From Lytechinus variegatus (lineage: Eukaryota > Echinodermata > Echinoidea > Temnopleuroida > Toxopneustidae), in assembly GCF_018143015.1 (NCBI RefSeq), contig NC_054740.1, positions 72,809,856-72,873,855 of the forward strand: a stretch of DNA of 64,000 nt. Direction: 5' to 3'. Position 1 is the first letter of the stretch, and every line of letters starts with the position of its first letter. The notes under the pieces are model-generated. The model saw nothing but the letters and a program-made list of their open reading frames with translations. It was not told the DNA's origin and did not search any database. A program made the position numbers and the translations under genes. Below are positions 711-31,859 of the stretch, in pieces.

Positions 711-711
711 C

Positions 712-2020: not shown

Positions 2021-2024
2021 ACAA

Positions 2025-3800: not shown

Positions 3801-3803
3801 GAT

Positions 3804-4975: not shown

Positions 4976-5640
4976 TACACAATTTGAGATATAAATTATA
5001 TGAATAAGTGAGTTTTATGGACTTAATGGTACATGATTTGAGAAATTTCGGGTAAATTTCCATAACGAGTCAAGGATATTTGTTTTCATACCGAAACTGC
5101 AGGCACAAATGAAAGATTGATAAAACTCTAGAACCGCAAAGAAAGATCAATTACCAAACACCAGCGATTCACAGCAATGGATTATAATGATAAGTGAGGG
5201 TGTATTGAAATATTTAAACTAAATCAAAACTATATGGTAATGTTTTGAACTGTAGGATAATGATAACTTGTACGAAGTCATTGCTTTTCCATGGGGAGAT
5301 CATGGAATTATGGAGAGATAGAGGTAGTGTGTGGGAGGGTGTGTGTGTGTGTGTCCACATTGGCGTGTGTGTGTGTGGGTGTGTGAGTGGGTTGCGGATA
5401 TGCGTCTGCGAGGGTGCGTGTGTGTGTGTGTGGAGGGGGGGGGGGCTTCCATATTAATCTCATCCTCTAGGTTCCCCTCGCTATTGTGTCGTGCTTCATT
5501 ATGAACAGTGGGAAATCCCACGTTGCCTTTGACCTTCGCTCAATACACAACGGATAATAATCATGTGTGAGCAAATATATCTGATACTACATTTCATTTT
5601 ACTCATACAGACTCTACTCACATTAATGGAACAGGGAAGC
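4976..5640. repeat. non-coding flank with (TG)n microsatellite
   Basis: About 5325-5445 is an imperfect GTGTGT/GTGCGT tract ending in a G run. The rest of the interval upstream of the Ig-GTPase gene shows no recognised element. The promoter of that gene should lie here, but no TATA box or other motif stands out. Confidence 0.6.
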
Positions 5641-5700
5641 GCTAACGTTATATTGACTGATTGATACGTCATTTATTTTCATCGAAATCTGAAATTTGTA

Positions 5701-5764
5701 ATGGATGAAATAGGAAAAGCATCTTGGTTTAGCACATTTCTGTTAGTATGTTTCCTTACTAGAG
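5701..5764 (+). CDS. Ig-GTPase gene exon 1: signal peptide
   Basis: The first ATG is followed by MDEIGKASW and the hydrophobic core FSTFLLVCFL, ending in ACTAGAG before a consensus donor GTAAGT. This is phase 1, matching exon 2. The sequence behaves like an ER signal peptide. The next downstream Ig exon in phase is 11.3 kb away, so the join is plausible but unproven. Confidence 0.6.
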
Positions 5765-8700
5765 GTAAGTTATATCTGACGTTTTATGTGTTTTTGGTTG
5801 AACAAGTGCTGCAATGTGTCATTAATGTTTTGTCAATGGTACAGAGGTGTGTAGTCGAATGTAAGTTTTCACAAGCCAATTTAGCTTCCTGATATTGTGG
5901 TTATCGGGTGAGCTATTAAAACCAACGTGTATATTCATTACTCCTTTCATGTTACTTGTTTTTATAGCGAATAACATTGCAATCTGAACCCCCATGGTTC
6001 TTGAGATAATGGGGGAAGGGGAGGGAGTGATGGTTTTCGAGTAAAGAAAACGGTCGACGTTTTGCTGTTGTATTGGAGGGATGGGGCGGGGCTTCCACCT
6101 AGTGCATAGATCCCACAGTGGCCCGTACGGCGGAGAGCGTCAATGTACATGTATATTTGCCCATCAAGAGCATTCATTCATTATTTATTTATTTAATGAA
6201 TAAAGAAAATAAATAATATTTATTTTCTTTATTTATACTGCAGTGTATATGCATGTTCCAGTTATGCAGAAATGCCCCCCCCCAAAAAAAAAATGTAAAG
6301 TGTATACTGCTATCAAACTCAACTGGTCTTACTGGCGTCACTGGCATTTTGCGTTTAGTTTTACGTATATCATGATCGGTGAATTTGTTGTGAAATCTTT
6401 CTGGTTTAATTTTTAAATATGTATTGCAAAATTAATTACACGTTTTCATTGTGAAGTATTTCACACATTTAAATTTATAATATTAAAAAAACAAGTGCCA
6501 TATTGCATGGATATTTTTTTTCTAAATACTGTTTAAAAATGTATTATTATGCAAAAGAGGCAAACCACTGAAATTAGACGAGCTGACTTATCAGGGGAAT
6601 ATATCTTGTTTCATGTCTTAAGCATAACGATAATTAAAATGAAAGTACTGAGTTCTCAAAATGCTTATAAATATATTAATGATAACATTGAAAAGAATAA
6701 TAACAATAGTACTGATAACAATAAATGATAATTACAATATATTTGATAGAATTGGTCTTCACTTGATTTTTACTGGTCCAGTTAAAATCAACTAGCCCAC
6801 TGCAAATATACTGAAACCAGAAAAAAAAATTGCCAAACTGATCCGAGGCAGACACCAGTTTGATGAAAACTCAAAAGTAAACTGGTATTACTACTTTTCT
6901 TGAACTGGTATCAATTTGATGGAATTTGTTTCTAATTGATTTTTACTGGTTCAGTTAACAATCAACCGGCCCAGTAAATATGTAATTGAAACCAGTAGAA
7001 CAAAATACTGGTCATACTGGTCCAGTATACACCAGTTTGATGAAACACAAGTTAGCTAGTGCTTGAACTGGTATAAATTTGATGGAATTTGTTTCCAGCT
7101 GATTTTTACTGTTCCAGTTAAAAATCAACTGGCCCAGTATAAATGTACTGGAAACCATAATAAAATACTGTTCATGCTGATCCAGTATACACCAGTTTGA
7201 TGAAAACAATTTGGCTGGTATTATTAATTTTCTTGAACAGGTATGCCCTTAAGGTACTGCTATCCAGTTGGTTTTTACTGGTCCAGTTAAAAATCAACTG
7301 GCCCACTCAGTAAAAACACACTTGAAACCAGTAAATATGGTAAATAAAACAAAAGAATAAGCCTACTGGTCTAACCGTTTTTTCCCTTCTGTCTGTAATT
7401 CACCATTCAAATTATACACAGTTTGCATATGTTTAGTTTTCACGCCCTTCTTTGATGCACATACACACATACATGCACGCACACACGATCGTTCGCGGTA
7501 CGTTTTAACTCTACTCCATGCAAAGGACCACTGCACTTCAAATGAATGCGTGAGTGCGAATGTTCGAAGCGGGGAATCCTCGGTCCCCTTTGACCTTGTC
7601 TTCTATACATGTATACAGCTGGTGTTAGATGTTCGTAAGGTTCCATGCGGCGCACATTGATGTGGCGTGCGCAAATGGTATGCCCATAGGTTAATTGTTT
7701 GGAAGATATGATTTTGAAGGTGAAAAGCGTAACAGTGAAGAGACAATGAGAGGAGCATTGTGTCTTGACTATCTGATCACATTCCTGATTGCTTACCATG
7801 AGCTTGGAATGAGAAAGTAATTTGCAGATTCCTTTTGTGATTTATTTATTCATTTATTTTATTTATTGGTATATATGCACATAAAAATTGACCAGCAGCA
7901 CAACCTGAAAGGGACAATTTACAAAAATTCATGAAGTACAATACACAGATATAACAAAGCAAATGCATAAAAACATGATTACAGTATTCTACGTCAAAAC
8001 TTATCTCAAACTATTAGATGTATCTCGTAAATAGAAGTTTGAGAAAGAGATAAATAAGCAAAGTGGAAGAGCGAAAGAGAAGAAGAAGAAGAAGAGAGAG
8101 AGAGTAATGGAAAGAGAGAGAGTAATTGAAAGAAAGAGAGGGAGAGAGGGGGTATATCGTCGGCCTTATGCCAAAAGGGCCTTAACTGCTTTTGGCCATT
8201 CCGAGATAATGGCGTTTATAAAGGTTTTGGCCTCTCTAATAATCAAAAGTTTGTGGTCGTTTTTTGCTTTTGAAGCCAATTTCGATAAACGTGTTAAGTT
8301 ATTAAGTTTTACATGAAATGTGTTAAATTTATTATAAAATATTCAGAACCCTAAAATCGGGTTAAGGCCCTTTTGGCATAAGGCCGACGATATGTCCTCC
8401 AAATAGAAAGAGAAAATTGATAGAGAGAAAAAACAAAAAGTAGTGAAGAAGAGGAGGGTGACATGGAGAACATAGAAGTCAAAATACTGTAAATTATGAT
8501 TGACAGTACATAATAAAGATATGAATCCTACATGTATATGAGATACAAAATGATTTATAAATAAAAAAAATAGATTCAACATAAGAACAAATAATATAAT
8601 ACATTTTAGCAAGACAATAACTGTAATCATTTCAAATTTTCCATGTACATAGGCCTAACCTACAAAGAACCGATAGAAAGCTAAAGAAAGGATGTATAGA

Positions 8701-11700
8701 AAGAAAGAGGGACAGACAAGAAAATAAAAAGAGTAAAGTGTAAGGGACAGGACTCAAAAAGGTAAAGAGAATATTACTATAGGAAAGGGAAAGAAAGAGA
8801 AAAGGGGAGAAAAAAATAAGGTACACTGTAAGAGAGTAAGTTTACATTGTAACAACACTAACAAAAAAGAGACAGAAGGATTGTGTCAGCCGACGATCAT
8901 TTTTTTTTTGCTTGTCAAATTTTTTGGGTTAGCCACTCCTAAAATTTAGGTTGATAACATTTCTTTCTTTTTTTTTGGGGGGGGGGCTTGTCCAATTTTT
9001 TACCTGTGTCCATCCCCAAATTTCAGGTGGACTGCCCTAGATTTTGGGGCTTTGAATGAATGAATGAATCTTTATTTCGCTTCAAATCCGATAACAAACA
9101 ACAACAACAGTAAATCAATGTGATACAAGCAAATAGCAAAGAACAGAAAGTAAATATTACAGGATAATATACATAATACATATAATATACTTGTAACACC
9201 CATGAGAATAGATGGAAATGAAACGTGGTGACCTACTAAAAAGCTTAGCTTGTGGACCATAGGCCACCAGAATATTAAAAACTTACATTAGCAATCGTAT
9301 AAAACATCATAGAACAAACAAACAAAAAATTGTAGTAACCAAGGTACAGATATACATATTTACAAAAGATACACTAAAAAGTAACAGAAAATGAAATGCA
9401 GAATGCAAACAAATCCTATTAGACCTAAACTATAAGAATCTAAAATTCAAAAAGAAGAAAGAAAAGAAGAAAAAAAAAGAAAATAGGCAGAGCTCTATTT
9501 TTGCATATATAATTGTGGAAAGAATACAATTTATAAAATTAGACAAGATATAACAAGCAGGCATTCGTTTACTGATCTAAGTATTTCTTAAGCAAATCGG
9601 TCTTTAACTTGTTTCTAAAAACACTGAGGCTAACTGATTGCTTCAAAGAAGAAGGAAGGGAGTTCCATAATTTTGGCCCGGTATAAACAAATGTATTTAG
9701 CCGAAAACTAGTTTTGACTAATGGCAAGTGGAGAAAAGAAACTTGTCTTGTATAGTAAGAATGGATTTGGTCATTTCTAACACATAATGAATAAATTAGG
9801 GCAAGAGGAAGTTTTCTTTTATTTAATTGATACATAATGCAACCGAGGTTGAGATCAAATATATCATGTAAATTAAGAAACTTGTTTTCATGAAACAAAA
9901 TATTAGTGTGATATCGTGAACTAACTCCACATACTAGTCTAATTACCCTTTTCTGCACTTTTAATAACCAAGCCAAATGAACTTTAGCAGCGTTACCCCA
10001 GGCAAGGATGCAATAATTCAAGTAAGGCAAAATGAGAGTTGAGTACAACATGCATAAAATATGTTTTGGAATATACTCTTCAATGAATTAATGACTCCTG
10101 AATTTCTGGAAAGTAGTTTACATAAATGAGATATGTGAACTTTCCAATTCAGCTTACTATCAATGTATATCCCAAGGAATTTTGTACTCAATACTTCAGT
10201 AATCTGAACATCATTAATTTAATATTATCTGGCAAATGTTGTAGGGTATTACTGAATAACATGTAGTTTGTTTTAACAAGATTTGAGGAAAGCCTGTTAG
10301 CAATGATCCATTCGTTAACAGAAATTAATTCTGAATTGATAGTTTGCAATAAATTGCAGGGGTTCTTTTCAGAAAAAAATATGCTTGAGTCATCTGCAAA
10401 CAGGATAAATGAAAGGATTTTTGATGACTGAGTGAAATCATTAGTATATATGAGAAATAATATAGGTCCAAGGAGTGAACCTTGTGGCACTCCACATGTA
10501 ATTGACTGCATAGATGACTTAACACCATTTAAAAATACAAACTGTTTTCTATCAGAGAGGTAGCTCTTGAACCACTCCAAAGCCTTACCCCGGAATCCAT
10601 AGAAAGATAGTTTATACAAAAGAACGTCATGGTCAATCGTGTCAAAGGCTTTGGAGTAGTCCAAGAATATACCGACAGTATGGAGCCCATTATCTCTTGC
10701 AGAAGAAATTTTGTCAATGAAATGCAGCAGAGCATGAGAGGTAGTGTGTTTTTCACGAAAACCAAATTGTTCAGGAGCGAGAATATTATTGATTTTCAAA
10801 AACTTCATAACACGAACAGAAATTATTTTTTCAAGAATTTTAGAAAATCATGTAAGAAGAGAGATGGGCCGGTAGTTTCCAACTTCCTGAGGATTTCCCT
10901 TTTTGTATATCGGCACAACTTTGGCTATCTTCATACTCAAAGGAACGATTCCATGTACAATAGATAAATTGAATATATGGGTAATAGGAGAAACAATATC
11001 AATGACTTCTTTAATAAGCTTGTTAGATAGTCCATCAGTGGCGTACCGTGGGTTACAGCATTGGGGGGGCACCAGCAAAATTTCGAGTCACTTAGGGAGC
11101 GCGCGAAGCGCGCTCAGTTGTCAGGTATTCTGACCTAACAGAGATATTTTAAGGACATGCAGGATATGTATCTCACTGATTAAATAATGCGAGCGCGAAG
11201 CGCGAGCTGAAAATTTTTGATATTCAGAGCTAAAAAGGGACATTATAAGCAATTTTTTTGTAATCATGATATGTAACTGTGTCGCTAAACAAACAATGCG
11301 AGCGCGAATTGCGAGCTAATTTTTTTTTATATATTGAACCTAATTAGAGAAATTTTTAGGACTATTTCAAAATCCATAAAGAGTATAAATATCTCACCAC
11401 AGTCATCTAATGCTAGTGCCATCCTTTGCTGATTTTGTTAGAATTACATCTAAACACAGTCATGAAACACCTTTTGTAGTCACTGTAATCATGATTATCA
11501 TACGCATTTAACTAATCAAATACTGCAAGCGCGAAGCGCGGGATAAAAATTTAGGAAATTTAGACCTGAAGAGGGGCATTCTAAGGCTTGTTTGTATGTA
11601 TTCCCTAAGACCGAATGTATTTCACTAACCAAATGATGCGAGCGCGAAGCGCGAGCTTAATTTTTTTATTTATTGACCCCAAACATGGATATTTTAAGGA

Positions 11701-14700: not shown

Positions 14701-17700
14701 TTTCGAACCCCCATGGTCTTGCCTGATATCCACTCATCAATGGAAGTGTTCCCCCCGGAATTTGAATCTAATCCCCCATTTCTGGGGAAAGTAAAACATA
14801 ATGCCCATTACATTGTGTGCGAGAGGCATATCGTTTGCGTAGAAGGAGCAAACAAAAGAAACAAAAGGAAACGTATAGCATATATGCTGTGTACATATCA
14901 ACGCATGCGAAATGTTCGGCTGGAGAGGTTGATCTGACCCATGAAATCAATTATTGCCAGTGATCCACCAATAATCCACATTAAATGTAATATCGATTCG
15001 ATGGACTTTAATGATCTATATCTAAGCCTTCATTCAGTAAGTTTTTCCTCACTCAATATGTACTCGATTTGTTTGAAAAACCACTTTCTTATCCATGTCA
15101 TAATCTATTTTAGGTCCTGCATTTCGAATATCTCCAGCCATCAGTCGTAATATACAGTCAGACTGCAGGTCCCAAGAAAGTGGCTTCTTTCATCCAAGTG
15201 ATATTCATGACTTGAGATGTTTTGCATATTTAATGGGCTTGATGCGGACCAAAGCACCTCTTTTCATTCGGTCATTGCTGCTCTAATTATGCATTGTAAA
15301 GAAGAAGAATCACTCTTTCAGATCATGTGTTTGGATTTATTCAAATATTTTGTAATATAGGTTAAAATTTTTATCTAAAATATGCTACAAAATAAATATT
15401 TTCACCTGACAAAAGCGGCTATTTTCACACTTTATTTTTGTTTGAGCCCAAATGATTTTTATATCATGATAAAGCTGAATAGGTATGCTTTGAAATGATA
15501 TAGGTTTCAAAATAAGGATTGGTTTAATCGGGTCAAGATCAAACTTTTCATTTGCCAAGTACATAAAGCAATTTGAAAACAAGAATACTGCACTCTGATT
15601 GGTCAAAGAGACCACACAATGGCAAATTCCAACGGTCCCAGTGCCTGGGTTCGTGGGAAGGTCACACTTCCCATGTGGTAATCTCCTCAAATACACCGCG
15701 CCTGTTGTTCTGTGAACCTTATCCAGCCAATCAGAACTCTGGATTTCATGCAAGTACAACATTTCAGAAATCTCGTCTTGTACCTTGGTGGGAAAAGTGT
15801 GATCTTGACCCGATTAAAAGAGTGGCATTGTGAGAAAGTACAGAAGTTCAGCTTTATGGTGATATAGATATCATTGAGGTTCAAAATAAAAAGTTTTGCA
15901 GAATTTGCAAAAGAAAACAGAGGAAGAAAATTCAGTTTTGAGGCACATTTTCAGGCCAGAAATTTACTTATTTAACAAAATATTGTATACAAAATAAATG
16001 ACCAATATGAAAGAGTAATATTTACTCTATCTGATGGTGCAATAATATTTCATTTAACTTGAGGTTAAAACAGGTAAATTCTTAGAGAAAGAAAATCTCA
16101 CGAATCACGAGATTTTGCAAGGAGGATTCAGCCACGAGATGATTTGGATGAATCTTGCCTTTTTGCTCATTAGCATAGGGACCTGCGGTCTGACTGGATA
16201 CATGCATGTATGGTGCGGGTGTCGCGGAAAAGTATTTTGCACACGAAAAGCAGATCTGTAGGACCTGTAACCCCCTGTAACACAAAGCTTAGCATTGATT
16301 GTAGAGCAGTTTTCTACGTTTGATTCTATTGACTATAATGCACAATCAATCTTAAAAATCAGGTGCATGATTAAGCGTTAACTTTTGTGTTAGGGGACCC
16401 TAATACTAGCGTCCATGAGGATTGCGAAAGGTCCCAATTTTGGTTTAGTACGGCCCCACCTTCCACACCTCGCGCAAATCGGACTCTAAACACGTAGTGT
16501 TGGGGCAAAAAGGACGTCCTTCAGAAAACATTTTGATTTTGTTTTGTCATTCCTGCATATTTGATCCTAAAGATATTTGATCCTAAACACGAAATAGATA
16601 CCCTTTTTTCAATATTTTTGTTGTTTTGACACCCTTATCACGTTACGTACGTAACGTGCCCTATCTTGAAAAAGACATCATTTTTACGGGGTTTTGGGGG
16701 GTCGCGCATGGTATCCACTCGTCAATGTAAGTGGCCCCCGGGCAGTGATGTAAAATTTGATTTATTACTATAGGAAAGTAAGGCGTGACTGCAATGACTG
16801 CATCTGGATTCAAGGCGTGACTGGATTCATTCATTGCAGTCATGCCTTACTTTGGCGTGACTGGATTCATTCATTGCAGTCATGCCAAAGTAAGGCGTGA
16901 CTGGATTCATTCATTGCAGTCATGAGTGTGTGAGAGAGTGACCCACCTTACAAAGAATGCACTGCCAATGAATCATTTCGTTTTGCTCAATAATAATAGT
17001 CAATGACTCTTCATTTAGAATACAATATCACCTTTCTCCTCTCACTTTTTTTTCATAGGTTGTTTGGCCAGGGTATATACTGAAAAACATGCAATAGGAT
17101 GGTTTGGTGAGACGGTACGTCTCCCATGTGAATTCCTCTACACGGATGTCCTTGCATTGTACTGGATGAACAGCAGTGGTGAAACAAAAGTATCGTATTT
17201 CAAAGGCGAACTTGTGAGCTTCGATGAACGGTTTCGTTTGAACGACGACTATTCAGTCGATATCCTGAATTTAACGGTGTCAGACGAAGGAGAATACACT
17301 TGCAGATTAGAACTTGATTCTGGAGATAGTTACCTTAATAGTTCCGAACTCACCATCTACGGTAAGTAGTCTTCATGTGCATACTTGATAGTCAGCCGAT
17401 TAAGGTTTGTTGGGGGGGGGGGGTAAGGGTAGGGTGATCAGGGACTGCATCATTAACAGGGGTGCCCTTTTTTTTAAATAAACCTCAAATGAAATAACGG
17501 ATGACATTTTTATCTATTCAGAATGTTTTTAAAGATTTTAGAATATAAGAAGTTATAGAGGCTATACCACCTTAGTTAAAGCGAAAAAAGAAACGTGATT
17601 TTTTGAAATGGCGTCCCAAAGGAAGGTTAATATGTCAATATGTGACATAATCTTGGGAATGAGGGCAAATAAACGAAATTTCTTGTACTTTCCGTTTCTC

Positions 17701-20700
17701 GAAACTCGGTCTCTTTTCCATTACACAGCGTCTCCATCGATGCCTCAGGTAACAAATTGTGACCCTCAGTCAACAAATAACCCATACCAACATCTGTGCA
17801 TCGTTGAAGCAGCCAACACATATCCGTTTAACCTAGAATGTGTTGTCAGTGGCTTCAAACCCGATGTAACCCTTGAATGGACGTCATCTGGTAAAGTGAA
17901 GCAACCCCTTGGAGATCCATCCCAGAGGACATTGCCCGATGGAAGATATGAAAAGGAGGCGACCATCACTGTGGCTGCTAAAGAAGACGAAGAACAAAAT
18001 TTCACCTGTACGGTAAGGGGCAATGCAACCAATGGCACTGACAGGTCAACAACCGTTACTGTGCTGGTTCCACCTCCGTCGACAGGTATAGAACAATAGT
18101 GAATACTATATATATTATATATACTCTATATTACCCACTTAGTTTTTATTCCCGGTTTCGGCATATTTTTTTACCAATAGTTGTGAGGGCAGCATGTTAC
18201 CCAGGCTTGGTTAAACGTTGGGCATTTAAAAAAAAACTATTTAAAATGTTTTAATAGTTTGGTATATACTAGAGTTGTCCAAATGAGAGCCCATGTTTAC
18301 TGGTTAAGTGTTCCTGTTACCATCGAGCTCTTTGAATCGAATGCAAAAATAAAACCTAGTTCAGGCATGGATCCTTGCCTCCTGGAAATCGAGTTCTCAA
18401 TCTGTTTGATTACTGGCTAGGGATGAAGCCCATGTTTTAAAAAGAAATAAGCAGACAAGGGAAACTGGACAGGAGGAAAACAACTGAATCTATTAAAAAA
18501 AAACTCAGTCTGTCATGTCTGTATAGGATATCGCACCAAAAAGAGAAACCCTAAATTTCGAAAGAAAGTTAATATACTCAAAACACACCATGTGTCAATA
18601 CTATTCTTTAGGTATCACAGGCCTAATTCATTCCCCATAGACTCATGTGTTAAATTGGCACTTTAAAAAATTCATACAAAATAAGGATGAAATTCGGGGG
18701 TCGAATGTTTACTACCAGTGGATAGGATATATATCTGGCAATCCATATCTGATCAGAAAAGGGTCCCTCTACCGGCTCATTTTAAAAATAAATTGGCGTG
18801 TTTGAAGACACCTTCGGGGGGGGAGCAGATTCATCACCTCAAACAGCAAAATAGCCCTAATCCTTCCGCCAGTGAAAATATAGTCCAAAATTGGTGATAT
18901 TTCTTCCCAATTTGGGAAAAGGAAGTTCAGTAATTACCAAAAATATAATCAGTGTTAGATGGACAATCATAATTATGCATACACTCTGTCAATCAGCCAT
19001 ATCAAAATAAAAAAATAGCAATGGGTTGGCTCGAATGAATATATATGGCCTGCCACTAGTGATTAGGTCCGTGTAACCTGTACTTTTCTGAAATGATTAT
19101 TATTATGTTATTTTCAATTTGATCTTTTTTTTAAATTTCTTTGATGCAGTGATCGTTGAACCTATGAGGAGTGGACTTTCAGTTGGAGTCAAGGTTGCGA
19201 TATATATCTTTGTTATACTGCTATTGATAGCCATTGGAATAGTCGCTTTATTTGTGACTTTGCTGGTTCTAAGGAAGAAGAAAAGACTATCGCCCCTAGG
19301 TATTTGACTTTATATCATTCATCAAAGATAAATCAACATAAAAAGAGAGAAAGCCCCTAAAAAATCTGAGATGATTGGTAAAAGTTTTAACATAGAAAAA
19401 CTTTAAGCTGTATGTGCGTGGGCCTACATCACTTTGTAATCACCCTATATATTGATCATATTTTGTTTATTGGCACATTTGATGGTATATTTCTTTATTT
19501 CATGATCCGGTGAGAAAGTTGTAAATTGTAATATTAGTTTTTGATACATTTTGTTGTACAAAGTAATTCTATTTATATTACCTTTATACTTCATTTTCCT
19601 TTCTCTTTACCGCTTAGAGGCAATTTTGTGATTTTATATAAAATTGCAATTGTATATAAAATTGTTATTATTATTATTACATATATACTAACATGAATTT
19701 TAAGTAAACTGTAAACACGGTAAAGGTCTCCTTTATTTATAATATGCAAACAAAAAGCAAGTAATGAAAAGAAAAAATAAGTAGAAGAAGAAGAGTAATC
19801 ATGTTTAACGCTAAACTAAAAATTCAAAATGATATTTTTCTTTTTTGTGAACCTATGACAACATCCTATCGATGTTATACAAGTCATTTTTTTTACAATT
19901 ACATGACATGTCCTTCGTTGCCTTGATTTACCACTTGCATTTGCTTCATTTCTCAAATATACACGGTTCACTTATTCCCCATTTTCCCATTTTTTTCTTA
20001 AACCAAAATCAGTTTTGCTACTATGATTGAATTTCTATTTACAATCGCCGGGTTTATAAAAAAAAAAAAGTTCTAAGACCTAAACTCAGAGCGCTCTATG
20101 TAATTTTATTGCGATCCGAATAAATTGTAATAACATTTGACTCCCATCCAATAAAGTCTTGGCGATCAGAGTTCAGAATAGTGGTACGAAAGAAATCGAA
20201 ATTCAGTCTAGTTTGAGCCTCCCTGTATAGGACTAAAAGAAAATTCATTTCCAAATCGTAATGACGTCATCATCTGCTGCAACTTGAAGCCGATTTGGAC
20301 TTTACTCCGACCACATGGCTTGCCGCAAATAAAACATATGATTCATTATTCCTAACATTATGCCGAGCTTCAAATAGAATTATTTCACTTTTTGGAACTT
20401 TCATATTTAATGCGAAATGTGATTTATTAAAGAAGGAAAATCATGTCATATCGGATCGCGTAGTGCGCTGGGCTTAAAAGAATGGTCCCACTGCACTGCA
20501 AAGCGGATGTAAAACGTAAATTAAATCTTGTCTTCCGTTGGAAGACGCTTTACATCTGCATAAATACGTGTTACTTACGCTCTATCCATCGAGGATCCGT
20601 CCACTGTGATTTCATCCGCACAAACAGTTTGAGTGTGCACCAAACTTAAGGTTTGGTCCCACTGGCCGACGGACACAACGCATTGATTTCGTGGTGGCTC

Positions 20701-23700
20701 CATCCGTTTTTATCCGCTCCAGACAATAGACTAAATGGGCGAACGATGAAATCACAGTGGACGGATGCTCGATGGATAAAGAGCGTATGAAACCGTATGC
20801 AAAGAGTACACAACGGATACACAACTGTTAACATTTTCCTGCGGATGGCAAGAATTTTCCGTTTTGCATCATCTCTGCATCCGTAAGTGCAGTGGGACCA
20901 AGCCTTGAACGGATGAACTTTCCGCCGGTATGATCCGCAACATATACGAGCAACAAACGTTCCATGTCCGTTATCATCCGTGAAACATCTGCTGTATCCT
21001 CTCTGCATCATCGCAACTCAGATCCACTGAAGCTGAACGGCGGAAATAGGGAGGAAAAATAAGGAACATGGAACGTCTATACATCGTATAGACACGGGAA
21101 TAGAAAGGATGTAAGCGTATGCATCTCGTAAATAAAGTATTCAAAATCCCCTCGTTCATGTCGTTTGAAGCTGTCATCCGCTTCCATCCGTTTTCATCCG
21201 CATGGTTTTAACATCCGCGCTTCATACGTGCACCACCCATGTCCATTCTTTTGCGTTGTGTTTTCGACAACCTTGTCCATTTAGGAACGGATGAAAATCG
21301 AATGGATCCACCCGCGATATGTTGCTCGTCCACTGTGTCCTTTATGAATTCGTTTTGTATACGTCAGCCAGTGAGACCAGGGATGAGAAAATTCACATAG
21401 ATCTTATGCCTTTCTCTATAGTAGACACCAACTCGCGCATCTGCCGTGGAAAACACAAAATTAAGACCCCTTGTTTTTCCTTTTTTAAAAGGTGAAGTAG
21501 TCTTGAATGTCATTCCTTGTCTGAGATCAGTATACTCGATGCCTATACCAGATCCAGAAGAAGTGAGATTACGTGAGTATTGCATTCAAATTTCATTTTT
21601 GTGGATGCATGCTGGATATAATGATTCCCTGGTAAATGATACTTCAAGAACTATAATAGTTTCAGGGTGAATGTCCGAATTCCAGGTTTCTTTAGATGTT
21701 TAACAGGGCGAACATTCGATTGTATAATATCATAAGCCAAATCTTATTCAAATCATTGCAAAGCTTAAATGCAACAAAAAAGTGAAAATTTTTTAATGCA
21801 ATGGTGACCCTTTGATTGATTATGACTAATATTACTAACATATATAGTATTCATTGATGAACATCTTTCCGCGATCATTATTTTTTTTAATTCGAGACCC
21901 TTTTGCATGCACATTTCAGAAAATATCAAGGAAGAATTAGCTGATCTACGTAAACGTTTACTGGACTTCAAATTTAAGCGAGATGGATCCATGGTGAAGT
22001 CAGCACACATCGGCTTGTTTGGAGAAATGGGAGCTGGAAAGTCGTCCTTCATAAATTCTCTTGAATTTGCACATACAGGTTAGGCTCTACGATCATACAC
22101 AGCAAAAACTGTGGTGTTAACCAGTTTTACACCTATAGGTGTTATTACAACACCTTTAGTTGTTACATTTACACTCTTTGGTGTTATGTTCAATCTCTAG
22201 GATGTAATTTTAACACCTCAGGGTGTGGTCCTCTATTAACACCAATTTGTGACAGTTTTAACGCCACAGCTTTTACAGTGTATGGCATACCATTATGAAC
22301 AAAGAAGGTGCGAACTGATAAGAAGGAGAGAGAGAAATTGAAAAGATCGTTTTTAGATTAGCGATTGATCGCTAATTTGGAAGAAAAATTCTGATTGTTC
22401 ATCCCAGTTAGTCTCCTGAGCGAAATGCGCATGCAACGATGATCTTGATAGGCTAATTCATTTAGCTATTAAATGGATAGTCCAGGCTGGAATATTTATC
22501 TCTCAATAAATAGAGTAAAATTTACAGAGCAAAATACTGGAATTTTGATCAAAATCGGATAACAAATAACGAAGTTATTGAATTTAAAAATTTGCATTAT
22601 TCCGGTGAAACAGTCCTAAGCATGTCTTTTTGAATATTCATTAGGCAGGTTGATGATGTCACATCCCCACTTATTCTGTTGTATTTTATTATACAAAATT
22701 ATGTTTATTCATTTTTTTTCTAGCAAGAACTAAAACAATTGGATTGACAAGTGATTAAGTGCATTAGTTTTTTTTGCCGCAACTTATTTCATCATAATGG
22801 AGACACATCATTTACACATGTATGAAAAAATGAAACATTTATCATTTCATTCACAGGAAAAAGGAAAGTGGGGATGTGACATCATCAGCCCACCTAATGA
22901 ATATTCGTGACGATGTGCATGTAACTGTTTTCACAAAATATTGATAAACTTTAAAATTCAAGAACCTCGTTATTTGTTATCCGATTAGACGAAATTTTCA
23001 GCATTTTTCTCTCTGAATTTCGCTTTATTTATTCAGATATGAATATTTTCAGCCCGGAACATCCCTTTAATCGCTATTAAACCTTTGTGTCATATTACGC
23101 GGCCCTGGTGATCTTAATGACTTCACTTAAGCAATAAGAAAATGAATGCGTATAATGGTCTTGGCCATTTTGGGGGCGATTTACAAACTTTATTTCAACG
23201 GTCTGAAACATCATTTCCTTGCCAAATAGAGGTTTTTCTACTCTCATCAAACAGGCAAATATAAAGAGAGTCAGGTGGTCGGTGACCTGGAATCTGGTGG
23301 AGGAAAAACCATTGCACGCACTGTCCTAAAGCTCACTAAGAGCATTCATATTTTCGACAACCGAGGCATGGCCGACTTCCAGAAAAATTACCTGACTGAA
23401 GTAACCGCTCAGATTCGTAAGTTATACTATCCTTTAATCAAATCTTTAGATCGTCGCTTCTGATTTTTAGCAATATCTGCAGCCATTGGTGACAGATCAA
23501 CCATTATTTTAATATCTGAATACTTGTTTCTTGAGAGAATGGCAATCAATCACAACTATTTGCAGAAACCTTTAAATTAACTTACAAAGATGACATCTGG
23601 CAAAAAAAGAGAAGACAATTTGAAGTGAAATCGGGTGTGAAAATTGCACATAATTTTTTTTTACGAATGAATTTGACTATTTTATTCCTAATAAAAAAAG

Positions 23701-26690
23701 TAATAATTTTCAGACTTTTTATTGGCGTGTAGTTTTTGTGGTAAATAATGCGCGAAATAAATTTCGGCGCGAACGGCGGCCGAGATACATCTCAAATAGC
23801 CCAGTCCTTTTTAGGGTTAACATTTTTTAAAACTAATATTTGATTTAAACTAAGTGACCATGCAAGTCCGAATGTTTTATTTTTCTCACCCAAAAAGGAT
23901 TTTTCTTATACTATCTTTAAATCCAATCAAGATTTATACATAAAATATTGCATTAATTATACTGGCAGGTGGAGAACGCGGACCAGACATAGAAAAAATC
24001 AAGCCAAGTGAACAGGAAGAAATACATTGTGCTGTCTTTGTGTACAAAAAGTCGTAAGTCAATTTCATTCTTCATTAGAAATTAAGCACATTTGGTTTAT
24101 GTCAAATTCAAAAGGCCTCCTATACTCCAACTTAGATATGTATTTAGCGTATGCGGATCCAGGGGGGCGAGGCCCCCCCCCCCCCCTATTGGCAGAAAAT
24201 AAAAAGAATCTTTCATGTCACTATATAAATTTTTCGCTCGCGCTTCGCGCTTGCGTTGCCTCTAGGTGATTTTCATATCTTGTTCAATATGGAGTTTGAA
24301 TATCAAGTTTGGATGTCAATATAGAAAACCCGGGATATATAACATATTTCACCTCGGAAATCGAACTTTCATTATTTTGTGTGATTTACAAATTTATTTT
24401 AAAAAGTGCTCTGTAAAAATGTCAGTTTTATGGCCTGATTATCAACATTTTCTGGTCGGGCTGCGCGCTCGAAAATTTTGATTAATCAGGTAAGTATAAT
24501 TTTCTTGTAGTCCATCAAGTTTTCAAAATATTTCTTTTCAGGTCTGATTGTCAAAACGTATCAGCTAGCGCACCACGCTCGCATTTTGTTTGGCGAGTTA
24601 TGTATGTTTCAATACTGATTATACAACAAACTACTTAAAATCCCATTTTCATGACAGGTTATCAAAAAATTTTGCTTGCGATTTGCTCTGGCATAAATGG
24701 TTAAAAATATATTAATTGATGCATCCTATTTATGATTACAACATGCTTGAAATGTCCAGTTTTTAGGCCGTAATATCATCAAATTTCGTGCCCTCAATAT
24801 GCATTAACGAATAAGATATTATTTTAGAAATTAAATTGTCCCCTTTGTTTTATCTCGCGCTTCGCAAGAGCAATAGGAAGATAGTCATCGTTTTCATAAT
24901 GATAACATGTCCTAAGGACATTATACATTCTATTCTAAAGTATTTGTACTAACAAAAATATCTTTTTTATCTAGTCCATTCAGTTGGCAATACGGACTTG
25001 CATTCATTGGGGACTTCGCCAAGGAGGTCAGGCAACACACTGGTATGTAGGTTTATTTCCAATTTCGTCTAATGCCAATTTGTCCAATTGCCAACTCGTC
25101 TACTATCATTATTTTGGTCTACCATCAGTTCATCCACTCAACACATGGTCTACTTTAATTTAGTTTAATTACATTTCGCCTTATAATCAGTTGGTCCAAT
25201 AGCCATTTAGTCCATACACCATGTGGTCGCATTGGACTTAGTGTTATATTGTGCAACATGAATGAAAAAGAAATGGATATTAAACCTACTGGTCATGAGA
25301 CGAAAGTGTCATGGACGAAATGGTGATTTGACGAAGTGATGACTGGATCAAATGGTTGTTAGACGAAATGTTGATGGACGGAATGGCATTAGACTACATG
25401 AAAGTATACCATGTGGTGAGTGGACGAGTTGGCAGTAAATGAATTGGCAATTTACCGGTATGGTATTGTTACTCTCGACACCCTGAAACCGTTGAGGCAT
25501 ATGGCACTCAAAATGTATTTGCATTGTCGACATAATATGTCGACAATGCAAATTAGCCCCGCAGCTGGTATCTCATTCATGAATCACATGTAAGATCTTA
25601 TAAAAAAAATCTTACTGAAGGGTGGCAAAGGCAATCAAGCAACCTCAGTGATTATTCGACAAGATCTGATGTTAACGATCGACTTAATAATGAGGTCTAC
25701 TTGACTATAAATAAGCATCAAGTTGTTTGTAGCATGATAAAACTATGCTCCCCTTAAAACATATAACATACCTTTTTTCAACAAACATCGAGTAAATTAT
25801 CATTTGGTAGAAACTCTAGTTTTTTTGGGGAAAATGTAATTGATCCATGTTCGTGTCAGGAGCGACGTCCTTGCATTAAGGACTTTCACATGAGGGGAAT
25901 GATTCGTGTGCTGAAACCATTGTAAACATTTCTGCTTCCTTACTATGTTTATTGATTTATTGACACAATTTTTAACCTCTTAAGATTTTACAAAATGTTA
26001 TCTTATTTTGCCTACAGATACATGCTTTTTTCCTTATTTTATCAACACACTATCCATAGGCTAATGGATTTTTAGTTTGAAGGATCGATGCGTGATGAAT
26101 CAGCCACCGAGGAAATTTGGTAGCGTGTAGAAGCATTATAGGCCTGTATCTATCACGCTAGAATTGTGTGTTATTTTCGTTATCATTATTAAATGTTCGT
26201 AATATTGGTCTAAAAGAAAAGTTTGAAATGGGTAATCAGGAGTGGTTTAACGAGTGATCGGGGGGGGGGGTCGACCAAACGATGTATAATAAATAAAAAA
26301 AGCGACACAGAATCCAGTTTTTTCCTCCAATTCTATTTTCCTTAAGGTTTGGAAACAACAGTCATCATTTACATGGCTAAAGTCTATAAAACCAGTAACT
26401 AATGAATAATTATGATTTCTAGAAATACAAAGTTAGTGTTTTTGTGTGTGTTCATTCCAGGTCATCCCCCAATGATCGTCATTACCCATGCAGCATCGCT
26501 TACCGAATCGGAAAGATACGACATCAAAACAGAACTTGCTACCCAAGATGTAAATGAGAACGTGTACTTTTTCGAAAATTACACGAAAAACAATTGCTTG
26601 GAAGATGAAGAAAAAAGTGTTGAGTTGCTGAAGTTCCTTGAAGATGCTCTCAGCAATTCTGGAGGTAAGGTGGCGCACAAAGACAGATAA
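5701..26690 (+). CDS. Ig-domain single-pass membrane protein with cytoplasmic IFI44-like GTPase domain (10 coding exons)
   Basis: Gene model joined from 5701-5764, 17059-17361, 17729-18085, 19150-19299, 21492-21572, 21920-22078, 23255-23416, 23969-24053, 24975-25042 and 26461-26690: all GT-AG, phases compatible, one frame, about 552 aa. Order: signal peptide (about 1-22); V-type Ig (about 22-122; C in LPCEF, W in LYW, YTC); C-type Ig (about 130-230; CVVSGFKPDVTLEW, NFTC); transmembrane helix (about 252-277) followed by RKKK stop-transfer; linker; GTPase-like domain (about 318-552). The last has Walker A GEMGAGKSS, DNRG where G3 is expected, IHCAVFVY, THAA where the G4 TKxD is expected, and ENYT near the end. 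IHCAVFVY and the ENYT region resemble the corresponding parts of human IFI44 (IHCVAYV, GNYA). All introns are phase 1 except one phase 2, as expected for shuffled Ig exons. Function (surface recognition coupled to a cytoplasmic GTPase) is inference. Least certain are the 11 kb link from exon 1 to exon 2 and the C-terminus. Confidence 0.68.
6199..6233. repeat. 35-bp AT-only-plus-G/C-spot perfect palindrome
   Basis: Two 17-bp arms (AATAAAGAAAATAAATA and its exact reverse complement) flank a single A, so the segment can extrude as a hairpin. It sits next to ATTT repeats. Confidence 0.8.
6755..7335. repeat. tandem repeat with ~165-bp unit rich in ACTGGTCCAGTT
   Basis: About 3.5 diverged units start near 6757, 6937, 7096 and 7270. 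Each carries TTGATTTTTACTGGTYCAGTT, AATCAACYGGCCCA, a block like ACACCAGTTTGATGAAA, and TTCTTGAACTGGTAT. ACTGG and CCAGT motifs occur in both orientations within a unit, so each unit is itself partly palindromic. Confidence 0.75.
8040..8150. repeat. (GA)n-rich low-complexity tract
   Basis: Imperfect purine run GAGAGAGA/AAGAAG abutting the left end of the following MITE. Confidence 0.8.
8154..8393. mobile_element. MITE with ~33-bp perfect terminal inverted repeats
   Basis: The left end ATATCGTCGGCCTTATGCCA and onward is exactly mirrored at the right end (TGGCATAAGGCCGACGATAT), giving a 240-bp non-coding element, probably with a TA target duplication. The superfamily is not assigned; a Tc1/mariner-like origin is possible. 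Confidence 0.75.
8400..9050. other. AT- and purine-rich non-coding stretch
   Basis: Only low-complexity AAAGAGAAA sequence and T/G runs (8900-9000) are present; no gene or terminal repeat is recognised. Confidence 0.4.
11036..12548. mobile_element. hAT-type MITE nested in the LINE, 8-bp TSD
   Basis: Ends are CAGTGGCGTA...TACGCCACTG, flanked on both sides by TAGTCCAT (11028-11035 and 12549-12556). CAGTG ends with an 8-bp duplication fit the hAT superfamily. The LINE reading resumes exactly across the duplication. No transposase is seen. The interior is a diverged minisatellite in which AATGCGAGCGCGAAGCGCGA-type palindromic blocks recur every 115-230 bp (near 11175, 11295, 11525, 11635, 11868 and 11980). 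Confidence 0.85.
12840..13548. mobile_element. inverted-repeat element made of CACGGATG-type units, nested in the LINE
   Basis: The terminal inverted repeats begin AAAGCCCCTTTTACACCTTC and extend through ACGGA...GATCATCACGG, matching the right end near 13500-13548. The interior is built from short GGATGA/ACACGG/CCCGG words in both orientations. No transposase is present. It interrupts the decayed 5' part of the LINE. Confidence 0.75.
14459..14757. mobile_element. second, internally deleted CCCGGG-ended MITE
   Basis: Ends CCCGGTGGGCCCACTTCCAT and ATGGAAGTGTTCCCCCCGG match the family of 42519-43071, with the diagnostic GTGGATACCA and TGATATCCACTCA blocks just inside. The middle is shorter than in the intact copy. 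Confidence 0.65.
15155..16196. mobile_element. long-arm fold-back MITE with CAGTCAGACTGCAGGTCCC ends
   Basis: The left end CAGTCAGACTGCAGGTCCC matches the right end GGGACCTGCGGTCTGACTG. Inside, long imperfect arms pair, for example TTTAATCGGGTCAAGATCAAA (15521 on) with GATCTTGACCCGATTAAAAG (15800 on), and TATCATGATAAAGCTGAA with TTCAGCTTTATGGTGATATA. The whole 1.04 kb can fold into a hairpin. No transposase. Confidence 0.7.
16776..16925. repeat. short tandem/inverted repeat of GGCGTGACTGGATTCATTCA
   Basis: The block GGCGTGACTGGATTCATTCATTGCAGTCATG occurs three times (near 16813, 16854 and 16894), joined by GCCTTACTTT or CCAAAGTAA. It lies 135 bp upstream of Ig exon 2. Confidence 0.8.
17059..17361 (+). 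CDS. Ig-GTPase gene exon 2: V-type Ig domain
   Basis: The exon lies between a pyrimidine-rich acceptor (TTTCATAG) and donor GTAAGT, both phase 1. It encodes 101 residues with the Ig V pattern: Cys in RLPCEF, Trp in ALYWMN, and DEGEYTCRL as the C-terminal D-x-G-x-Y-x-C motif. Three N-glycosylation sequons are visible (NSSG, NLTV, NSSE). Confidence 0.85.
17362..17728. other. Ig-GTPase intron 2
   Basis: Ordinary short intron with a G10 run; no element recognised. Confidence 0.7.
17729..18085 (+). CDS. Ig-GTPase gene exon 3: second Ig (C-type) domain
   Basis: The exon is 357 nt, phase 1 at both ends, with acceptor TACACAG and donor GTATAG. It encodes CVVSGFKPDVTLEW and, about 50 residues later, NFTCTV, the Cys-Trp-Cys core of a C-set Ig domain. 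Two extra cysteines near the start (NCDP, HLCIV) could form an additional disulphide. A Pro-rich hinge (VPPPST) ends the exon. Confidence 0.85.
18086..19149. other. Ig-GTPase intron 3
   Basis: A 1.06 kb intron without recognised exon, terminal repeat or RNA gene. Confidence 0.65.
19150..19299 (+). CDS. Ig-GTPase gene exon 4: transmembrane segment
   Basis: The exon is 150 nt, phase 1/1. It encodes a short juxtamembrane stalk, then VAIYIFVILLLIAIGIVAL continuing to FVTLLVL, followed by RKKKR. A helix of this length with a basic cytosolic flank predicts a type I single-pass membrane protein. Confidence 0.85.
20483..21382. mobile_element. TGGTCCCACTG-ended MITE cluster in Ig-GTPase intron 4
   Basis: The left end TGGTCCCACTGCACTG and the right end CAGTGAGACCA mirror imperfectly. 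The interior is filled with CGGATG/CATCCG words in both orientations. A second, better-preserved copy lies inside at 20650-20907. The preceding intron part (19300-20480) has an ATT-rich stretch near 19660 but nothing else recognised. Confidence 0.55.
20650..20907. mobile_element. nested TTGGTCCCACTG-ended MITE
   Basis: Ends GGTTTGGTCCCACTGG and CAGTGGGACCAAGCC are near-perfect inverted repeats, giving a 258-bp element of the same family as the sequence it sits in. Confidence 0.65.
21492..21572 (+). CDS. Ig-GTPase gene exon 5: cytoplasmic linker
   Basis: The 81-nt phase 1/1 exon follows acceptor TTTTTTAAAAG and precedes donor GTGAGT. It encodes EVVLNVIPCLRSVYS and MPIPDPEEVRL. No known motif is recognised. 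The exon is supported by the flanking splice sites and phase agreement, but it is short and therefore less certain. Confidence 0.6.
21920..22078 (+). CDS. Ig-GTPase gene exon 6: P-loop (Walker A) exon
   Basis: The exon encodes an amphipathic, possibly coiled-coil start (ELADLRKRLLDFKFKR) and then HIGLFGEMGAGKSSFINSL, a clear GxxGxGKS P-loop preceded by a hydrophobic beta strand. In IFI44 the P-loop is likewise preceded by a charged helix and followed by SFxNSI. Phase 1/1. Confidence 0.85.
22094..22284. mobile_element. 191-bp MITE, ends CATACACWG...
   Basis: The left end CATACACAGCAAAAACTGTGG pairs with the right end CCACAGCTTTTACAGTGTATG. The interior repeats AACACC/GGTGTT words. It lies in Ig-GTPase intron 6 directly after the P-loop exon. 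Confidence 0.7.
22469..23070. mobile_element. fold-back MITE, TTAAAGGGA-type ends
   Basis: The left end TTAAATGGATAGTCCAGGCT pairs with the right end AGCCCGGAACATCCCTTTAA. Long arms also pair: AATCGGATAACAAATAACGA (22553 on) with TCGTTATTTGTTATCCGATT (22968 on), and internal GATGATGTCACATCCCCAC with GTGGGGATGTGACATCATC. 602 bp, non-coding, in Ig-GTPase intron 6. Confidence 0.75.
23255..23416 (+). CDS. Ig-GTPase gene exon 7: G3 region
   Basis: Phase 1/1 exon encoding SQVVGDLESGGGKTIARTV, then SIHIFDNRGMADFQ. The hydrophobic strand plus DNRG occupies the place of the G3 DxxG motif of IFI44-like GTPases (DTMG in human IFI44, from memory). The Thr in KTIAR may be the G2 switch I threonine. Confidence 0.8.
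23700..23816. mobile_element. piggyBac-type MITE end fragment
   Basis: The sequence ending CAAATAGCCCAGTCCTTTTTAGGG/TTAA matches the right end of the element at 57700-58381 (GAAATAGCCCAGTCTATTTAGGG/TTAA), including an upstream GGCCGAGAT block. The other end was not found. It lies in Ig-GTPase intron 7. Confidence 0.45.
23969..24053 (+). CDS. Ig-GTPase gene exon 8
   Basis: The exon enters in phase 1 and leaves in phase 2. It encodes GERGPDIEKIKPSEQEEIHC and AVFVYKKS. The stretch resembles the IFI44 segment SPSLKDRIHCVAYV, which is the main reason for preferring IFI44 over other P-loop families such as the AIG1/GIMAP or IRG GTPases. Confidence 0.75.
24150..24900. mobile_element. hAT-like MITE relative in Ig-GTPase intron 8
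   Basis: It starts near GCGGATCCAGGGGGGCGAGG followed by a C run. Blocks such as CGCTCGCGCTTCGCGC (24235) and CTCGCGCTTCGCAAGAG (24854) resemble the interior of the hAT MITEs at 11036 and 46535. Both ends are eroded and no target duplication is identified. Confidence 0.4.
24975..25042 (+). CDS. Ig-GTPase gene exon 9
   Basis: Short 68-nt exon, phase 2 in and phase 1 out, bounded by TTTATCTAG and GTATGT. It encodes SPFSWQYGLAFIGDFAKEVR and QHTG. By position it corresponds to the helix between IHCVAYV and the G4 strand of IFI44. Confidence 0.65.
25055..25460. repeat. inverted repeat built from GTCTAATGCCAATTTGTCC-type words
   Basis: The left part (CCAATTTCGTCTAATGCCAA, CCAACTCGTCTAC) is mirrored by the right part (GTGGACGAGTTGGCAGT, GAATTGGCAATTTACCGG). 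The interior contains many TGGACGAAATGG and CCATTTAGTCCA words. Probably a fold-back MITE in Ig-GTPase intron 9. Confidence 0.55.
25521..25549. repeat. 29-bp perfect palindrome
   Basis: GCATTGTCGACAT, AAT, ATGTCGACAATGC: 13-bp arms around a 3-nt loop, with two SalI-like GTCGAC sites. The rest of intron 9 (25550-26460) shows nothing else. Confidence 0.75.
26461..26690 (+). CDS. Ig-GTPase gene exon 10: G4-like region and C-terminus
   Basis: The exon follows acceptor TTCATTCCAG and encodes PPMIVITHAASLTESERYDI, later ENVYFFENYTKNN, then LLKFLEDAL. THAA stands where a TKxD/THxD G4 motif would be. The frame ends at TAA at 26688 after KVAHKDR. A consensus donor (GGAG/GTAAGG) at 26665 suggests an alternative spliced end, and a Lys/Glu-rich ORF (26705-26835) follows in another frame. 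Confidence 0.7.
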
Positions 26691-26704
26691 AAAAGGTAAC
26701 GCCT

Positions 26705-26835
26705 ATGAAGTCAAAATCCAAGTCAAAGAAAGAAAAGAAACATAAACAGGAAGAACAACCGTCGACAGTAACTACGAGAGACCCAGTGCTGATAATGCTC
26801 ATGAAAACAAGTAGTCAAGTCAAGAACCCCAACAT
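26705..26835 (+). other. Lys/Glu-rich ORF just 3' of the GTPase stop
   Basis: The reading frame gives KSKSKSKKEKKHKQEEQPST, then VTTRDPVLIML. It is offset in frame from exon 10 and cut off by the left end of the following MITE. It may be an alternative basic C-terminal tail of the Ig-GTPase, reached through the donor at 26665, or simply 3' UTR. The only nearby acceptor-like AG would make an implausibly short 22-nt intron. Confidence 0.3.
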
Positions 26836-27632
26836 CACCGTCAAGTTGGGTATGACTACATTTTTTTTGCTGGAAGTTGTAGTATAGGGTGTCTACTCCC
26901 AGAATCCGATGGGTTCCACCTTGGCACCCTTGGGCATTTTTATTGACGTCATAGGCCACGCCCACTTTCTCACATACCTCTTATATATGATTTTCATATT
27001 TTACAGAATTTACATGTCCTGTTTGGTATCAAATAAAAGCTAATGAAAAATCAAATGCAAATATATGAATTACTGGGAATTTTAATTACGAAAAGGTCAG
27101 TTATAGGTCGTTTAAGGTCATGAAAGGTCAAATTGTCTTACAAATAAAAGTAAGACATATAATGCGGAACATACCATGCTTTAAATACAAACAAGTTAGG
27201 TATTAGATGCATTTTTTGCAAAGGTTAAGTCAGAAATAGAAATCGTCAAAGAGTGAGGAGGTAGAACTCTATACACACCAAATATATCTCAACCAAACAT
27301 GAAATATTTCACATTATATGTTGCATTAATTACATTTGTGGCCCAGTTTGACCTTTTATAACCATAAAATGACCTTTAATTGTCCTGGAATAAATGCCTG
27401 GTGATTCATATAAGTGGATTTTATTTTGAATTTGATTCAATTCGATATCAAATATGATATGTTTATTCCGTTAAATATTTAAGAGGAATGTGAAAAAGTG
27501 TCTAGCCTATGACTTCAATAACAAAAAAATGCCCAAGGCGACCCAGTTGGCATCCATCGGATTCTTGAAGTAGACACCCCATACTACAATTTCCAGCAAA
27601 AAAATCGCAGTCATACGTAACTTGACGGTCAT
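26833..27632. mobile_element. ~800-bp MITE with ~130-bp terminal inverted repeats
   Basis: The left arm CACCGTCAAGTTGGGTATGA...GTAGTATAGGGTGTCTAC...GACGTCATAGGC pairs with the right arm ...GTAGACACCCCATACTAC...CGTAACTTGACGGTCATG. No transposase frame. It abuts, and may have truncated, the 3' end of the Ig-GTPase gene. Confidence 0.75.
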
Positions 27633-27823
27633 GCAACAATTTTGATCATATCTACCCGACGAAAGGGATTCTTTGGAAGGATCTTAGATTGGGTGTGGGG
27701 AAAAGGACTTTTCCACCCCTTTTTTTGTACGTGAGATTTAGAGTTTAATGATTGGTGTGTGCTTGGTTTATACGGAATGATGTTTATTAGCACAAAAGGC
27801 CCTCGGACAAACCCATTTTTTGT

Positions 27824-28830: not shown

Positions 28831-28831
28831 T

Positions 28832-31803: not shown

Positions 31804-31859
31804 TAAATGTAATTTCCTTAACAAATACAAAACAACAACTGGGTATCTGAATTCATCAG

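What the first reader, a model, noticed from the sequence alone, without database searches (positions are those of the whole stretch)
5701..26690. Ig-domain surface receptor fused to a cytoplasmic IFI44-like GTPase
Seen: ten GT-AG exons in consistent phase encode signal peptide, V-Ig, C-Ig, transmembrane helix, basic stop-transfer, linker and a P-loop domain (GEMGAGKSS, DNRG, IHCAVFVY, THAA, ENYT). Known: vertebrate IFI44/IFI44L are soluble interferon-induced proteins with this GTPase-like domain and, as I recall, no Ig or membrane segment. Inference: an invertebrate immune-type receptor in which ligand binding by Ig domains could directly control a GTPase, a single-chain design I do not know to be described.
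Basis: partly seen in the sequence, partly recalled or inferred. Interest (0 to 1): 0.88.

Follow-up and report, generated by a model that had tools for sequence, protein, structure and literature searches.

The report
Ig receptor with IFI44-like tail
This animal gene appears to encode a cell-surface protein with two antibody-like domains outside the cell and, on the same chain, a nucleotide-binding domain inside it that distantly resembles the vertebrate antiviral protein IFI44; the fusion is predicted from DNA only, and a comparable sea cucumber receptor uses a different inner domain.

Summary
Ten GT-AG exons on the + strand (5701-26690) chain in frame to 552 aa: leader, V-type Ig, C-type Ig, one transmembrane helix, basic stop-transfer, linker, P-loop domain. 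The Ig domains are certain (Pfam). The P-loop domain passes no Pfam cut-off. It matches a two-sequence IFI44/IFI44L profile, built from human sequences I recalled, better (27.4 bits) than any of 177,635 PDB sequences does (best 14.6). The signal lies mostly in the P-loop and the helix before it. No TLDc domain was found and G4 has lost its Asp, so I call it IFI44-like, not a member. 'GTPase' is unproven. Exon 5, between membrane and P-loop, is one of only 3 strong phase 1-1 candidate exons on both strands, all 3 in this gene, which favours one gene over two. But the exon 4 donor and exon 6 acceptor are weak, so transcript proof is needed. Exon 10 has a very strong internal donor at 26665, so the C-terminus is doubtful. 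Sea cucumber AjNLRC4 (Ig-Ig-TM-NACHT) is a precedent for the design. Ten literature searches listed no Ig-TM-IFI44 paper. Verdict: new variant of a known kind.

The parts
5701..5764 (+). exon 1: start codon and hydrophobic leader (signal peptide judged by eye)
   Evidence: donor GTAAGTTA in top 0.1% of GTs
17059..17361 (+). exon 2: V-type Ig domain, phase 1-1
   Evidence: (V-set 2.1e-10)
17729..18085 (+). exon 3: C-type Ig domain, phase 1-1
   Evidence: Ig_3 1.6e-11, C1-set 1.6e-5
19150..19299 (+). exon 4: transmembrane helix and RKKKRL stop-transfer, phase 1-1; weak donor GTATTTGA
21492..21572 (+). exon 5: 27-residue juxtamembrane linker, phase 1-1
21920..22078 (+). exon 6: helix and P-loop GEMGAGKSS; weak acceptor; an in-frame ATG lies just upstream in the intron
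23255..23416 (+). exon 7: G3-like DNRG
23969..24053 (+). exon 8: PS-EEIHCAVFVY, the IFI44-like motif
24975..25042 (+). exon 9
26461..26690 (+). exon 10: degenerate G4 (THAA), ENYT and last helix; probable internal donor after 26664, alternative stop 26688-26690
26833..27633 (.). fold-back (MITE-like) element just downstream of exon 10; may interrupt the original 3' end
   Evidence: arms 26833-26941 and 27525-27633, 84% complementary

Best explanation
One gene encodes a type I single-pass surface receptor. Shown from sequence: two Ig domains, one membrane helix, a basic stop-transfer, a short linker and a P-loop domain distantly related to that of IFI44, all in one frame. Inferred: the Ig domains bind a microbial, self or cell-surface ligand and cluster. 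Clustering then brings the P-loop domains together at the membrane, where nucleotide-dependent self-association recruits effectors, perhaps cytoskeletal or phagocytic as in AjNLRC4. The lost G4 aspartate suggests a nucleotide-loaded scaffold rather than a classical GTP switch. There is no ITIM-like tyrosine motif, and the only charged residue in 255-281 is K256 at the outer edge, so signalling through the attached domain is more likely than through tyrosine motifs or an adaptor.
For: Gene chain, phases and frame. Pfam Ig domains; the Ig part alone matches 838 PDB sequences at E up to 1, best 2.1e-11. Cytoplasmic part against a recalled IFI44/IFI44L profile: 27.4 bits, E 2e-5 at Z=177,635, best of 1000 shuffles 5.0; best PDB sequence with the same profile 14.6 bits. 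In the other direction, recalled IFI44 scores 26.9 bits summed over two stretches (best one 20.0) and the best of 400 shuffled IFI44/IFI44L sequences 3.0; the best PDB sequence scores 20.4, also summed over two stretches (233-residue query). Exon 5 is 1 of 3 strong phase 1-1 candidate exons on both strands, all 3 in this gene. No Pfam hit at E up to 0.1 in the three + frames of 18086-22062 and none at 0.01 in the three - frames of 18-28 kb. No ITIM-like motif. Working precedent for the layout in AjNLRC4.
Against: No transcript and no second genome could be examined. Exon 4 donor (0.0 bits, top 11.1% of GTs) and exon 6 acceptor (-0.1 bits, top 13.1% of AGs) are weak; exons 4 and 6 do not appear in the candidate-exon scan even at its loosest cut-off of 0/0. 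In-frame Met codons in exon 5 and just upstream of exon 6 would allow a separate start. IFI44 similarity is about 26% and concentrated in the P-loop half (21.8 bits); exons 7-10 alone score 3.9, no better than the best shuffles. Recalled IFI44L alone scores only 13.7 bits, E 0.38, less than the best PDB sequence with this query. The IFI44 sequences were recalled, not fetched. The frame scan also failed to flag the P-loop exon it contained, so its silence on TLDc is weak evidence.
Confidence: 0.68

Rival explanations
1. Two adjacent genes: an Ig-Ig-TM protein with a very short tail (exon 4 read through ends LSPLGI-stop) and a separate soluble IFI44-like P-loop protein starting in exon 5 or just before exon 6.
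For: Weak exon 4 donor and exon 6 acceptor. In-frame Met in exon 5 and upstream of exon 6. AATAAA sites in the gap at 20119, 20150, 20328 and 21131, though such sites are common throughout this AT-rich region.
Against: Exon 5 has both a good acceptor and a good donor, is phase 1 at both ends and is open, which fits an internal exon downstream of a phase-1 donor such as exon 4. A free-standing IFI44 would be expected to bring a TLDc domain; none was seen in the three + frames of the gap (limited sensitivity).
Confidence: 0.2
2. The gene makes both forms by alternative 3' ends: a short Ig-TM receptor and a long one with the P-loop domain. This does not exclude the best explanation.
For: Weak exon 4 donor with an in-frame stop right after it, and polyadenylation-like sites in the intron.
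Against: No transcript data. AATAAA is too common here to carry weight.
Confidence: 0.3
3. The P-loop domain belongs to another GTPase family (RsgA-like, GIMAP, IRG, septin).
For: Sub-threshold Pfam hits for the P-loop part alone: RsgA_GTPase 2.1e-5 (24.8 bits, cut-off 30), Septin, MMR_HSR1, IIGP. A mouse IRG protein at 16.1 bits in the PDB, above recalled IFI44L alone at 13.7.
Against: Recalled human IFI44 gives weak sub-threshold Pfam hits to some of the same models (RsgA, MMR_HSR1, IIGP), so they mark the shared P-loop. The IFI44 profile puts this protein above every PDB sequence, GIMAPs included. PS and IHC are shared with both recalled sequences.
Confidence: 0.15
4. A decayed gene: the fold-back element and the doubtful 3' end mark a pseudogene.
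For: Fold-back element at 26833-27633 right after the last exon; unclear last exon.
Against: All ten exons are open, no frameshift or stop in 552 codons, P-loop and Ig cysteines kept.
Confidence: 0.07

Closest known systems
[quoted passage not shown] reported as a membrane receptor that binds microbes and promotes phagocytosis (abstract and passages).
   Different: Its inner domain is NACHT and it has two predicted membrane segments; here the inner domain is IFI44-like with no NACHT hit and one membrane helix.
AjNLR-new of the same animal (PMC13133943)
   Same: Ig, TM and NACHT on one chain, reported as a phagocytic receptor (passages).
   Different: Reported with the NACHT domain outside and the Ig domain inside; 1197 aa.
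Vertebrate IFI44 / IFI44L
   Same: P-loop half with the preceding helix, and the PS..xxIHC motif (human sequences recalled). PMC6712396 calls IFI44 a cytoplasmic protein with a GTP-binding domain but no homology to GTPases, and detects it in cytoplasm and nucleus (passages).
   Different: Recalled IFI44 carries TLDc, no Ig domain and no known membrane helix (the latter two recalled); G4 is THVD/TKVD in the recalled sequences, THAA here.
Cnidarian Ig-TIR receptors (PMC5094078)
   Same: Ig domain combined with a signalling domain in one gene (passages).
   Different: The partner is TIR, not a P-loop NTPase.

Membership tests
IFI44/IFI44L | IFI44-type P-loop and preceding helix | tested here: met
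   27.4 bits against a recalled two-sequence profile, best PDB sequence 14.6; exons 5-6 alone 21.8 bits. Against: recalled IFI44L as a single sequence gives only 13.7 bits, E 0.38
IFI44/IFI44L | similarity continuing through the rest of the nucleotide-binding domain | tested here: inconclusive
   exons 7-10 alone 3.9 bits; P147 S148, I153 H154 C155 and T194 invariant with both recalled sequences, but ENYT is not aligned to their NY motif
IFI44/IFI44L | N-terminal TLDc domain | tested here: not met
   no TLD hit in the protein or in three + frames of 18086-22062 (limited sensitivity); recalled IFI44 hits TLD at 1.5e-8
IFI44/IFI44L | G4 motif with Asp (THVD/TKVD in the recalled pair) | tested here: not met
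   THAA here
IFI44/IFI44L | induction by interferon or virus | not testable with these tools
   no expression data
AjNLRC4-type Ig-TM-NACHT receptor | two Ig domains outside | tested here: met
   outside position follows from leader and RKKKRL, not tested
AjNLRC4-type Ig-TM-NACHT receptor | membrane segment between Ig and NTPase | tested here: met
   one hydrophobic peak, windows starting 254-265; AjNLRC4 has two
AjNLRC4-type Ig-TM-NACHT receptor | NACHT domain | tested here: not met
   no NACHT among Pfam hits up to E 1
AjNLRC4-type Ig-TM-NACHT receptor | microbe binding and phagocytosis | not testable with these tools
   needs protein
ITIM/ITAM Ig receptor | cytoplasmic tyrosine motif | tested here: not met
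   no [SIVL]xYxx[ILV] in the protein; the one Yxx[LI] is in the Ig part at residue 142

The most novel reading that the evidence does not exclude
A lineage joined a paired-Ig ectodomain to an IFI44-like nucleotide-binding domain, making a one-chain surface receptor whose signal-giving part is the antiviral effector domain itself. This would mean IFI44-type domains can act as membrane-proximal, nucleotide-regulated signalling modules, giving a natural test of what the poorly understood IFI44 domain does when clustered.
Probability: 0.55. Interest if true: 0.66.

Novelty: new variant of a known kind. Interest (0 to 1): 0.52.

Why it matters
To my knowledge (recalled) it is not settled what the nucleotide-binding half of IFI44 does; PMC6712396 describes a GTP-binding domain with no homology to GTPases (passages). 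A natural receptor that clusters this domain at the membrane would give it an input (ligand) and a place to act, and would extend the pattern, seen in sea cucumber AjNLRC4, of Ig ectodomains being joined to P-loop NTPase domains in animals without antibodies.

Tried and rejected
Whole-genome search: no genome is held for this window, so no paralogue count or wider synteny. Relatives in viral and prokaryote contigs: none confirmed (1 stretch matched a pattern, 0 confirmed; 28 stretches, 0 confirmed); a single-sequence query reaches close relatives only. Phage tblastn gave 2 records at E=1, not meaningful. A second copy in the window: none found by tblastn. Structure prediction of the two Ig exons from single sequences was poor (mean pLDDT 58.2 and 57.6), and the Foldseek search of the first gave no match at E<=0.001 among 635 at E<=10; I draw nothing from it. 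The spliced P-loop domain was not folded, because structure prediction takes only proteins read letter for letter from the DNA.

Downstream exons: after the strong donor at 26665, the scan of 26720-34000 for phase-1 acceptors scoring 4 or more with at least 15 open codons gave 2 candidates, at 27007 and 29881. The first lies inside the fold-back element and encodes 20 residues; I do not accept either. Pfam scans of the three + frames gave no hit at 0.01 in 26460-35461, 35460-45451 or 45440-55431, nor in intron 1 at 5765-15366. These scans are blunt: one search found the split S8e gene, but one search did not flag the P-loop exon and one search did not flag exon 10. Not scanned in this way: + strand 1-5764, 15367-18085 (its Ig exons were tested) and 55432-64000, and the - strand outside 18-28 kb, 50-60 kb and the single ORFs.

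NCBIfam gave only sub-threshold P-loop hits. Rfam at gathering scores and ARAGORN were empty. Literature: ten searches listed no title or abstract about an Ig-TM-IFI44 protein. I saw only the capped lists, and passages of seven papers. The library holds open-licence papers only, no gene database, and supplements could not be opened, so this is weak evidence of absence.

Full report
What was checked. No whole genome is held for the window; the split, intron-bearing genes show it to be eukaryotic, and the species could not be tested. The two other frames of the joined exons hold 36 and 37 stops. A tblastn of the protein against the window finds its own ten exons and otherwise nothing better than E 0.038.

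The outside half is certain. Pfam gives Ig_3 at 1.6e-11, V-set at 2.1e-10, I-set at 3.3e-8 and C1-set at 1.6e-5, all above their cut-offs. Both domains keep the Cys pair and a Trp. The twelve most hydrophobic 19-residue windows start at residues 254-265 and RKKKRL follows at 283, which predicts that the P-loop part is in the cytosol. Six of the seven N-glycosylation sequons lie in the Ig part. The leader (TFLLVCFL core) is judged by eye. Single-sequence folds of the two Ig exons were too poor to use.

The inside half is a P-loop domain of uncertain family. Seen alone it hits RsgA_GTPase at 24.8 bits, below the cut-off of 30, and a spread of other P-loop models more weakly. As far as one search shows, Pfam has no IFI44 nucleotide-domain model to be hit: recalled human IFI44 itself gives TLD at 1.5e-8 and then only weak sub-threshold P-loop hits. 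BLASTP aligns 195 residues to IFI44 at 26% identity. phmmer gives IFI44 26.9 bits (best stretch 20.0) but IFI44L only 13.7, E 0.38; the best of 400 shuffled copies is 3.0. A two-sequence profile scores the cytoplasmic part at 27.4 bits, E 2e-5 at Z=177,635; the best of 1000 shuffles is 5.0. The same profile gives at most 14.6 bits to any of 177,635 PDB sequences, with GIMAPs at 11-13. Against this reading, exons 5-6 alone carry 21.8 bits and exons 7-10 only 3.9, the single-sequence PDB search has a best of 20.4 bits, and the IFI44 sequences were recalled. G1 (GEMGAGKSS) and G3 (DNRG) are present; G4 is THAA where the recalled pair has THVD/TKVD. No TLDc domain was found in the protein or in the three + frames of 18086-22062; that frame scan also missed the P-loop exon, so it is not very sensitive. 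I file the domain as IFI44-like, not as a member.

One gene or two. Exon 5 links the halves. On a simple splice matrix, open exons of 60-400 bases, phase 1 at both ends, with acceptor at least 4.4 and donor at least 2.4 number 3 on the + strand and 0 on the - strand of the whole window: exon 2, exon 5 and exon 10 ending at 26664. At looser cut-offs the counts (+ and -, overlapping variants included) grow to 5 and 2, then 12 and 11, then 26 and 26, so the contrast depends on the threshold; exons 4 and 6 do not appear even at the loosest. Because exon 5 is symmetric, exon 4 would also join exon 6 in frame without it. Against a single gene, the donor of exon 4 (0.0 bits) and the acceptor of exon 6 (-0.1 bits) are weak, and in-frame Met codons in exon 5 and just upstream of exon 6 would permit a second start. 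I put the single gene at about 0.75 to 0.8, with alternative 3' ends quite possible.

A correction to the model. The donor GGAG|GTAAGG inside exon 10 ranks in the top 0.1% of GTs in the window, so exon 10 probably ends at 26664 and the printed end of the tail may not be used. An 801-base fold-back element, 26833-27633, follows, and a Lys-rich open frame lies between. I could not find a convincing next exon.

How it most likely works. Shown: order of parts and predicted topology. Inferred: ligand-driven clustering of the Ig domains concentrates the P-loop domains under the membrane, where they act as a nucleotide-loaded scaffold that recruits effectors. No ITIM-like tyrosine motif exists in the protein and the only charged residue in 255-281 is K256 at the outer edge, so the attached domain is the likely signalling unit. 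The loss of the G4 Asp argues against a strict GTP switch.

What is known. In sea cucumber, AjNLRC4 carries Ig-like and Ig domains outside and NACHT inside, sits in the membrane, binds microbes and promotes phagocytosis (PMC8699970, abstract and passages). AjNLR-new combines the same domains, reported in the opposite orientation (PMC13133943, passages). IFI44-named genes appear in invertebrate immune studies: Nematostella (PMC13319465), oyster (PMC8917759) and Aplysia (PMC9334734), each seen as passages only, with no Ig fusion in the passages shown. Ten literature searches listed no Ig-TM-IFI44 paper (capped lists, titles and abstract starts). So the single-chain Ig-TM-NTPase design is a known kind, and the IFI44-like domain in that position appears to be a new variant.

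Noticed in passing
26669-26887 +: Lys-rich open frame (KSKSKSKKEKKHKQEEQ...) directly after exon 10 in another frame, running into the fold-back element; only a sub-threshold Itfg2 hit (E 0.05). Possibly the remains of the true 3' exon or just A-rich UTR.
   Followed up: partly
26833-27633: Fold-back (MITE-like) element, terminal arms 109 nt at 84% complementarity, with further nested arms.
   Followed up: partly
about 53487-53624 - (further exons within 50-60 kb): Ribosomal protein S8e gene on the minus strand, 1.1e-27 over three stretches; a neighbour useful for synteny and a positive control for the frame scans.
   Followed up: partly
10191-10847 -: Reverse transcriptase ORF (RVT_1 9.6e-28) on the minus strand in the 11 kb first intron, a retroelement insertion.
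   Followed up: partly
37850-38803 -: 317-aa Ser/Thr/Pro-rich ORF ending in a hydrophobic membrane-like stretch, mucin-like by eye, no Pfam hit.
   Followed up: partly
1974-2418 +: ORFs that look by eye (recalled) like a Penelope-type endonuclease; no Pfam hit at 0.01.
   Followed up: partly
11100-12260: Runs of a short GCGAGCGCGAAGCGCGAGC-type repeat in intron 1, seen by eye.
   Followed up: no
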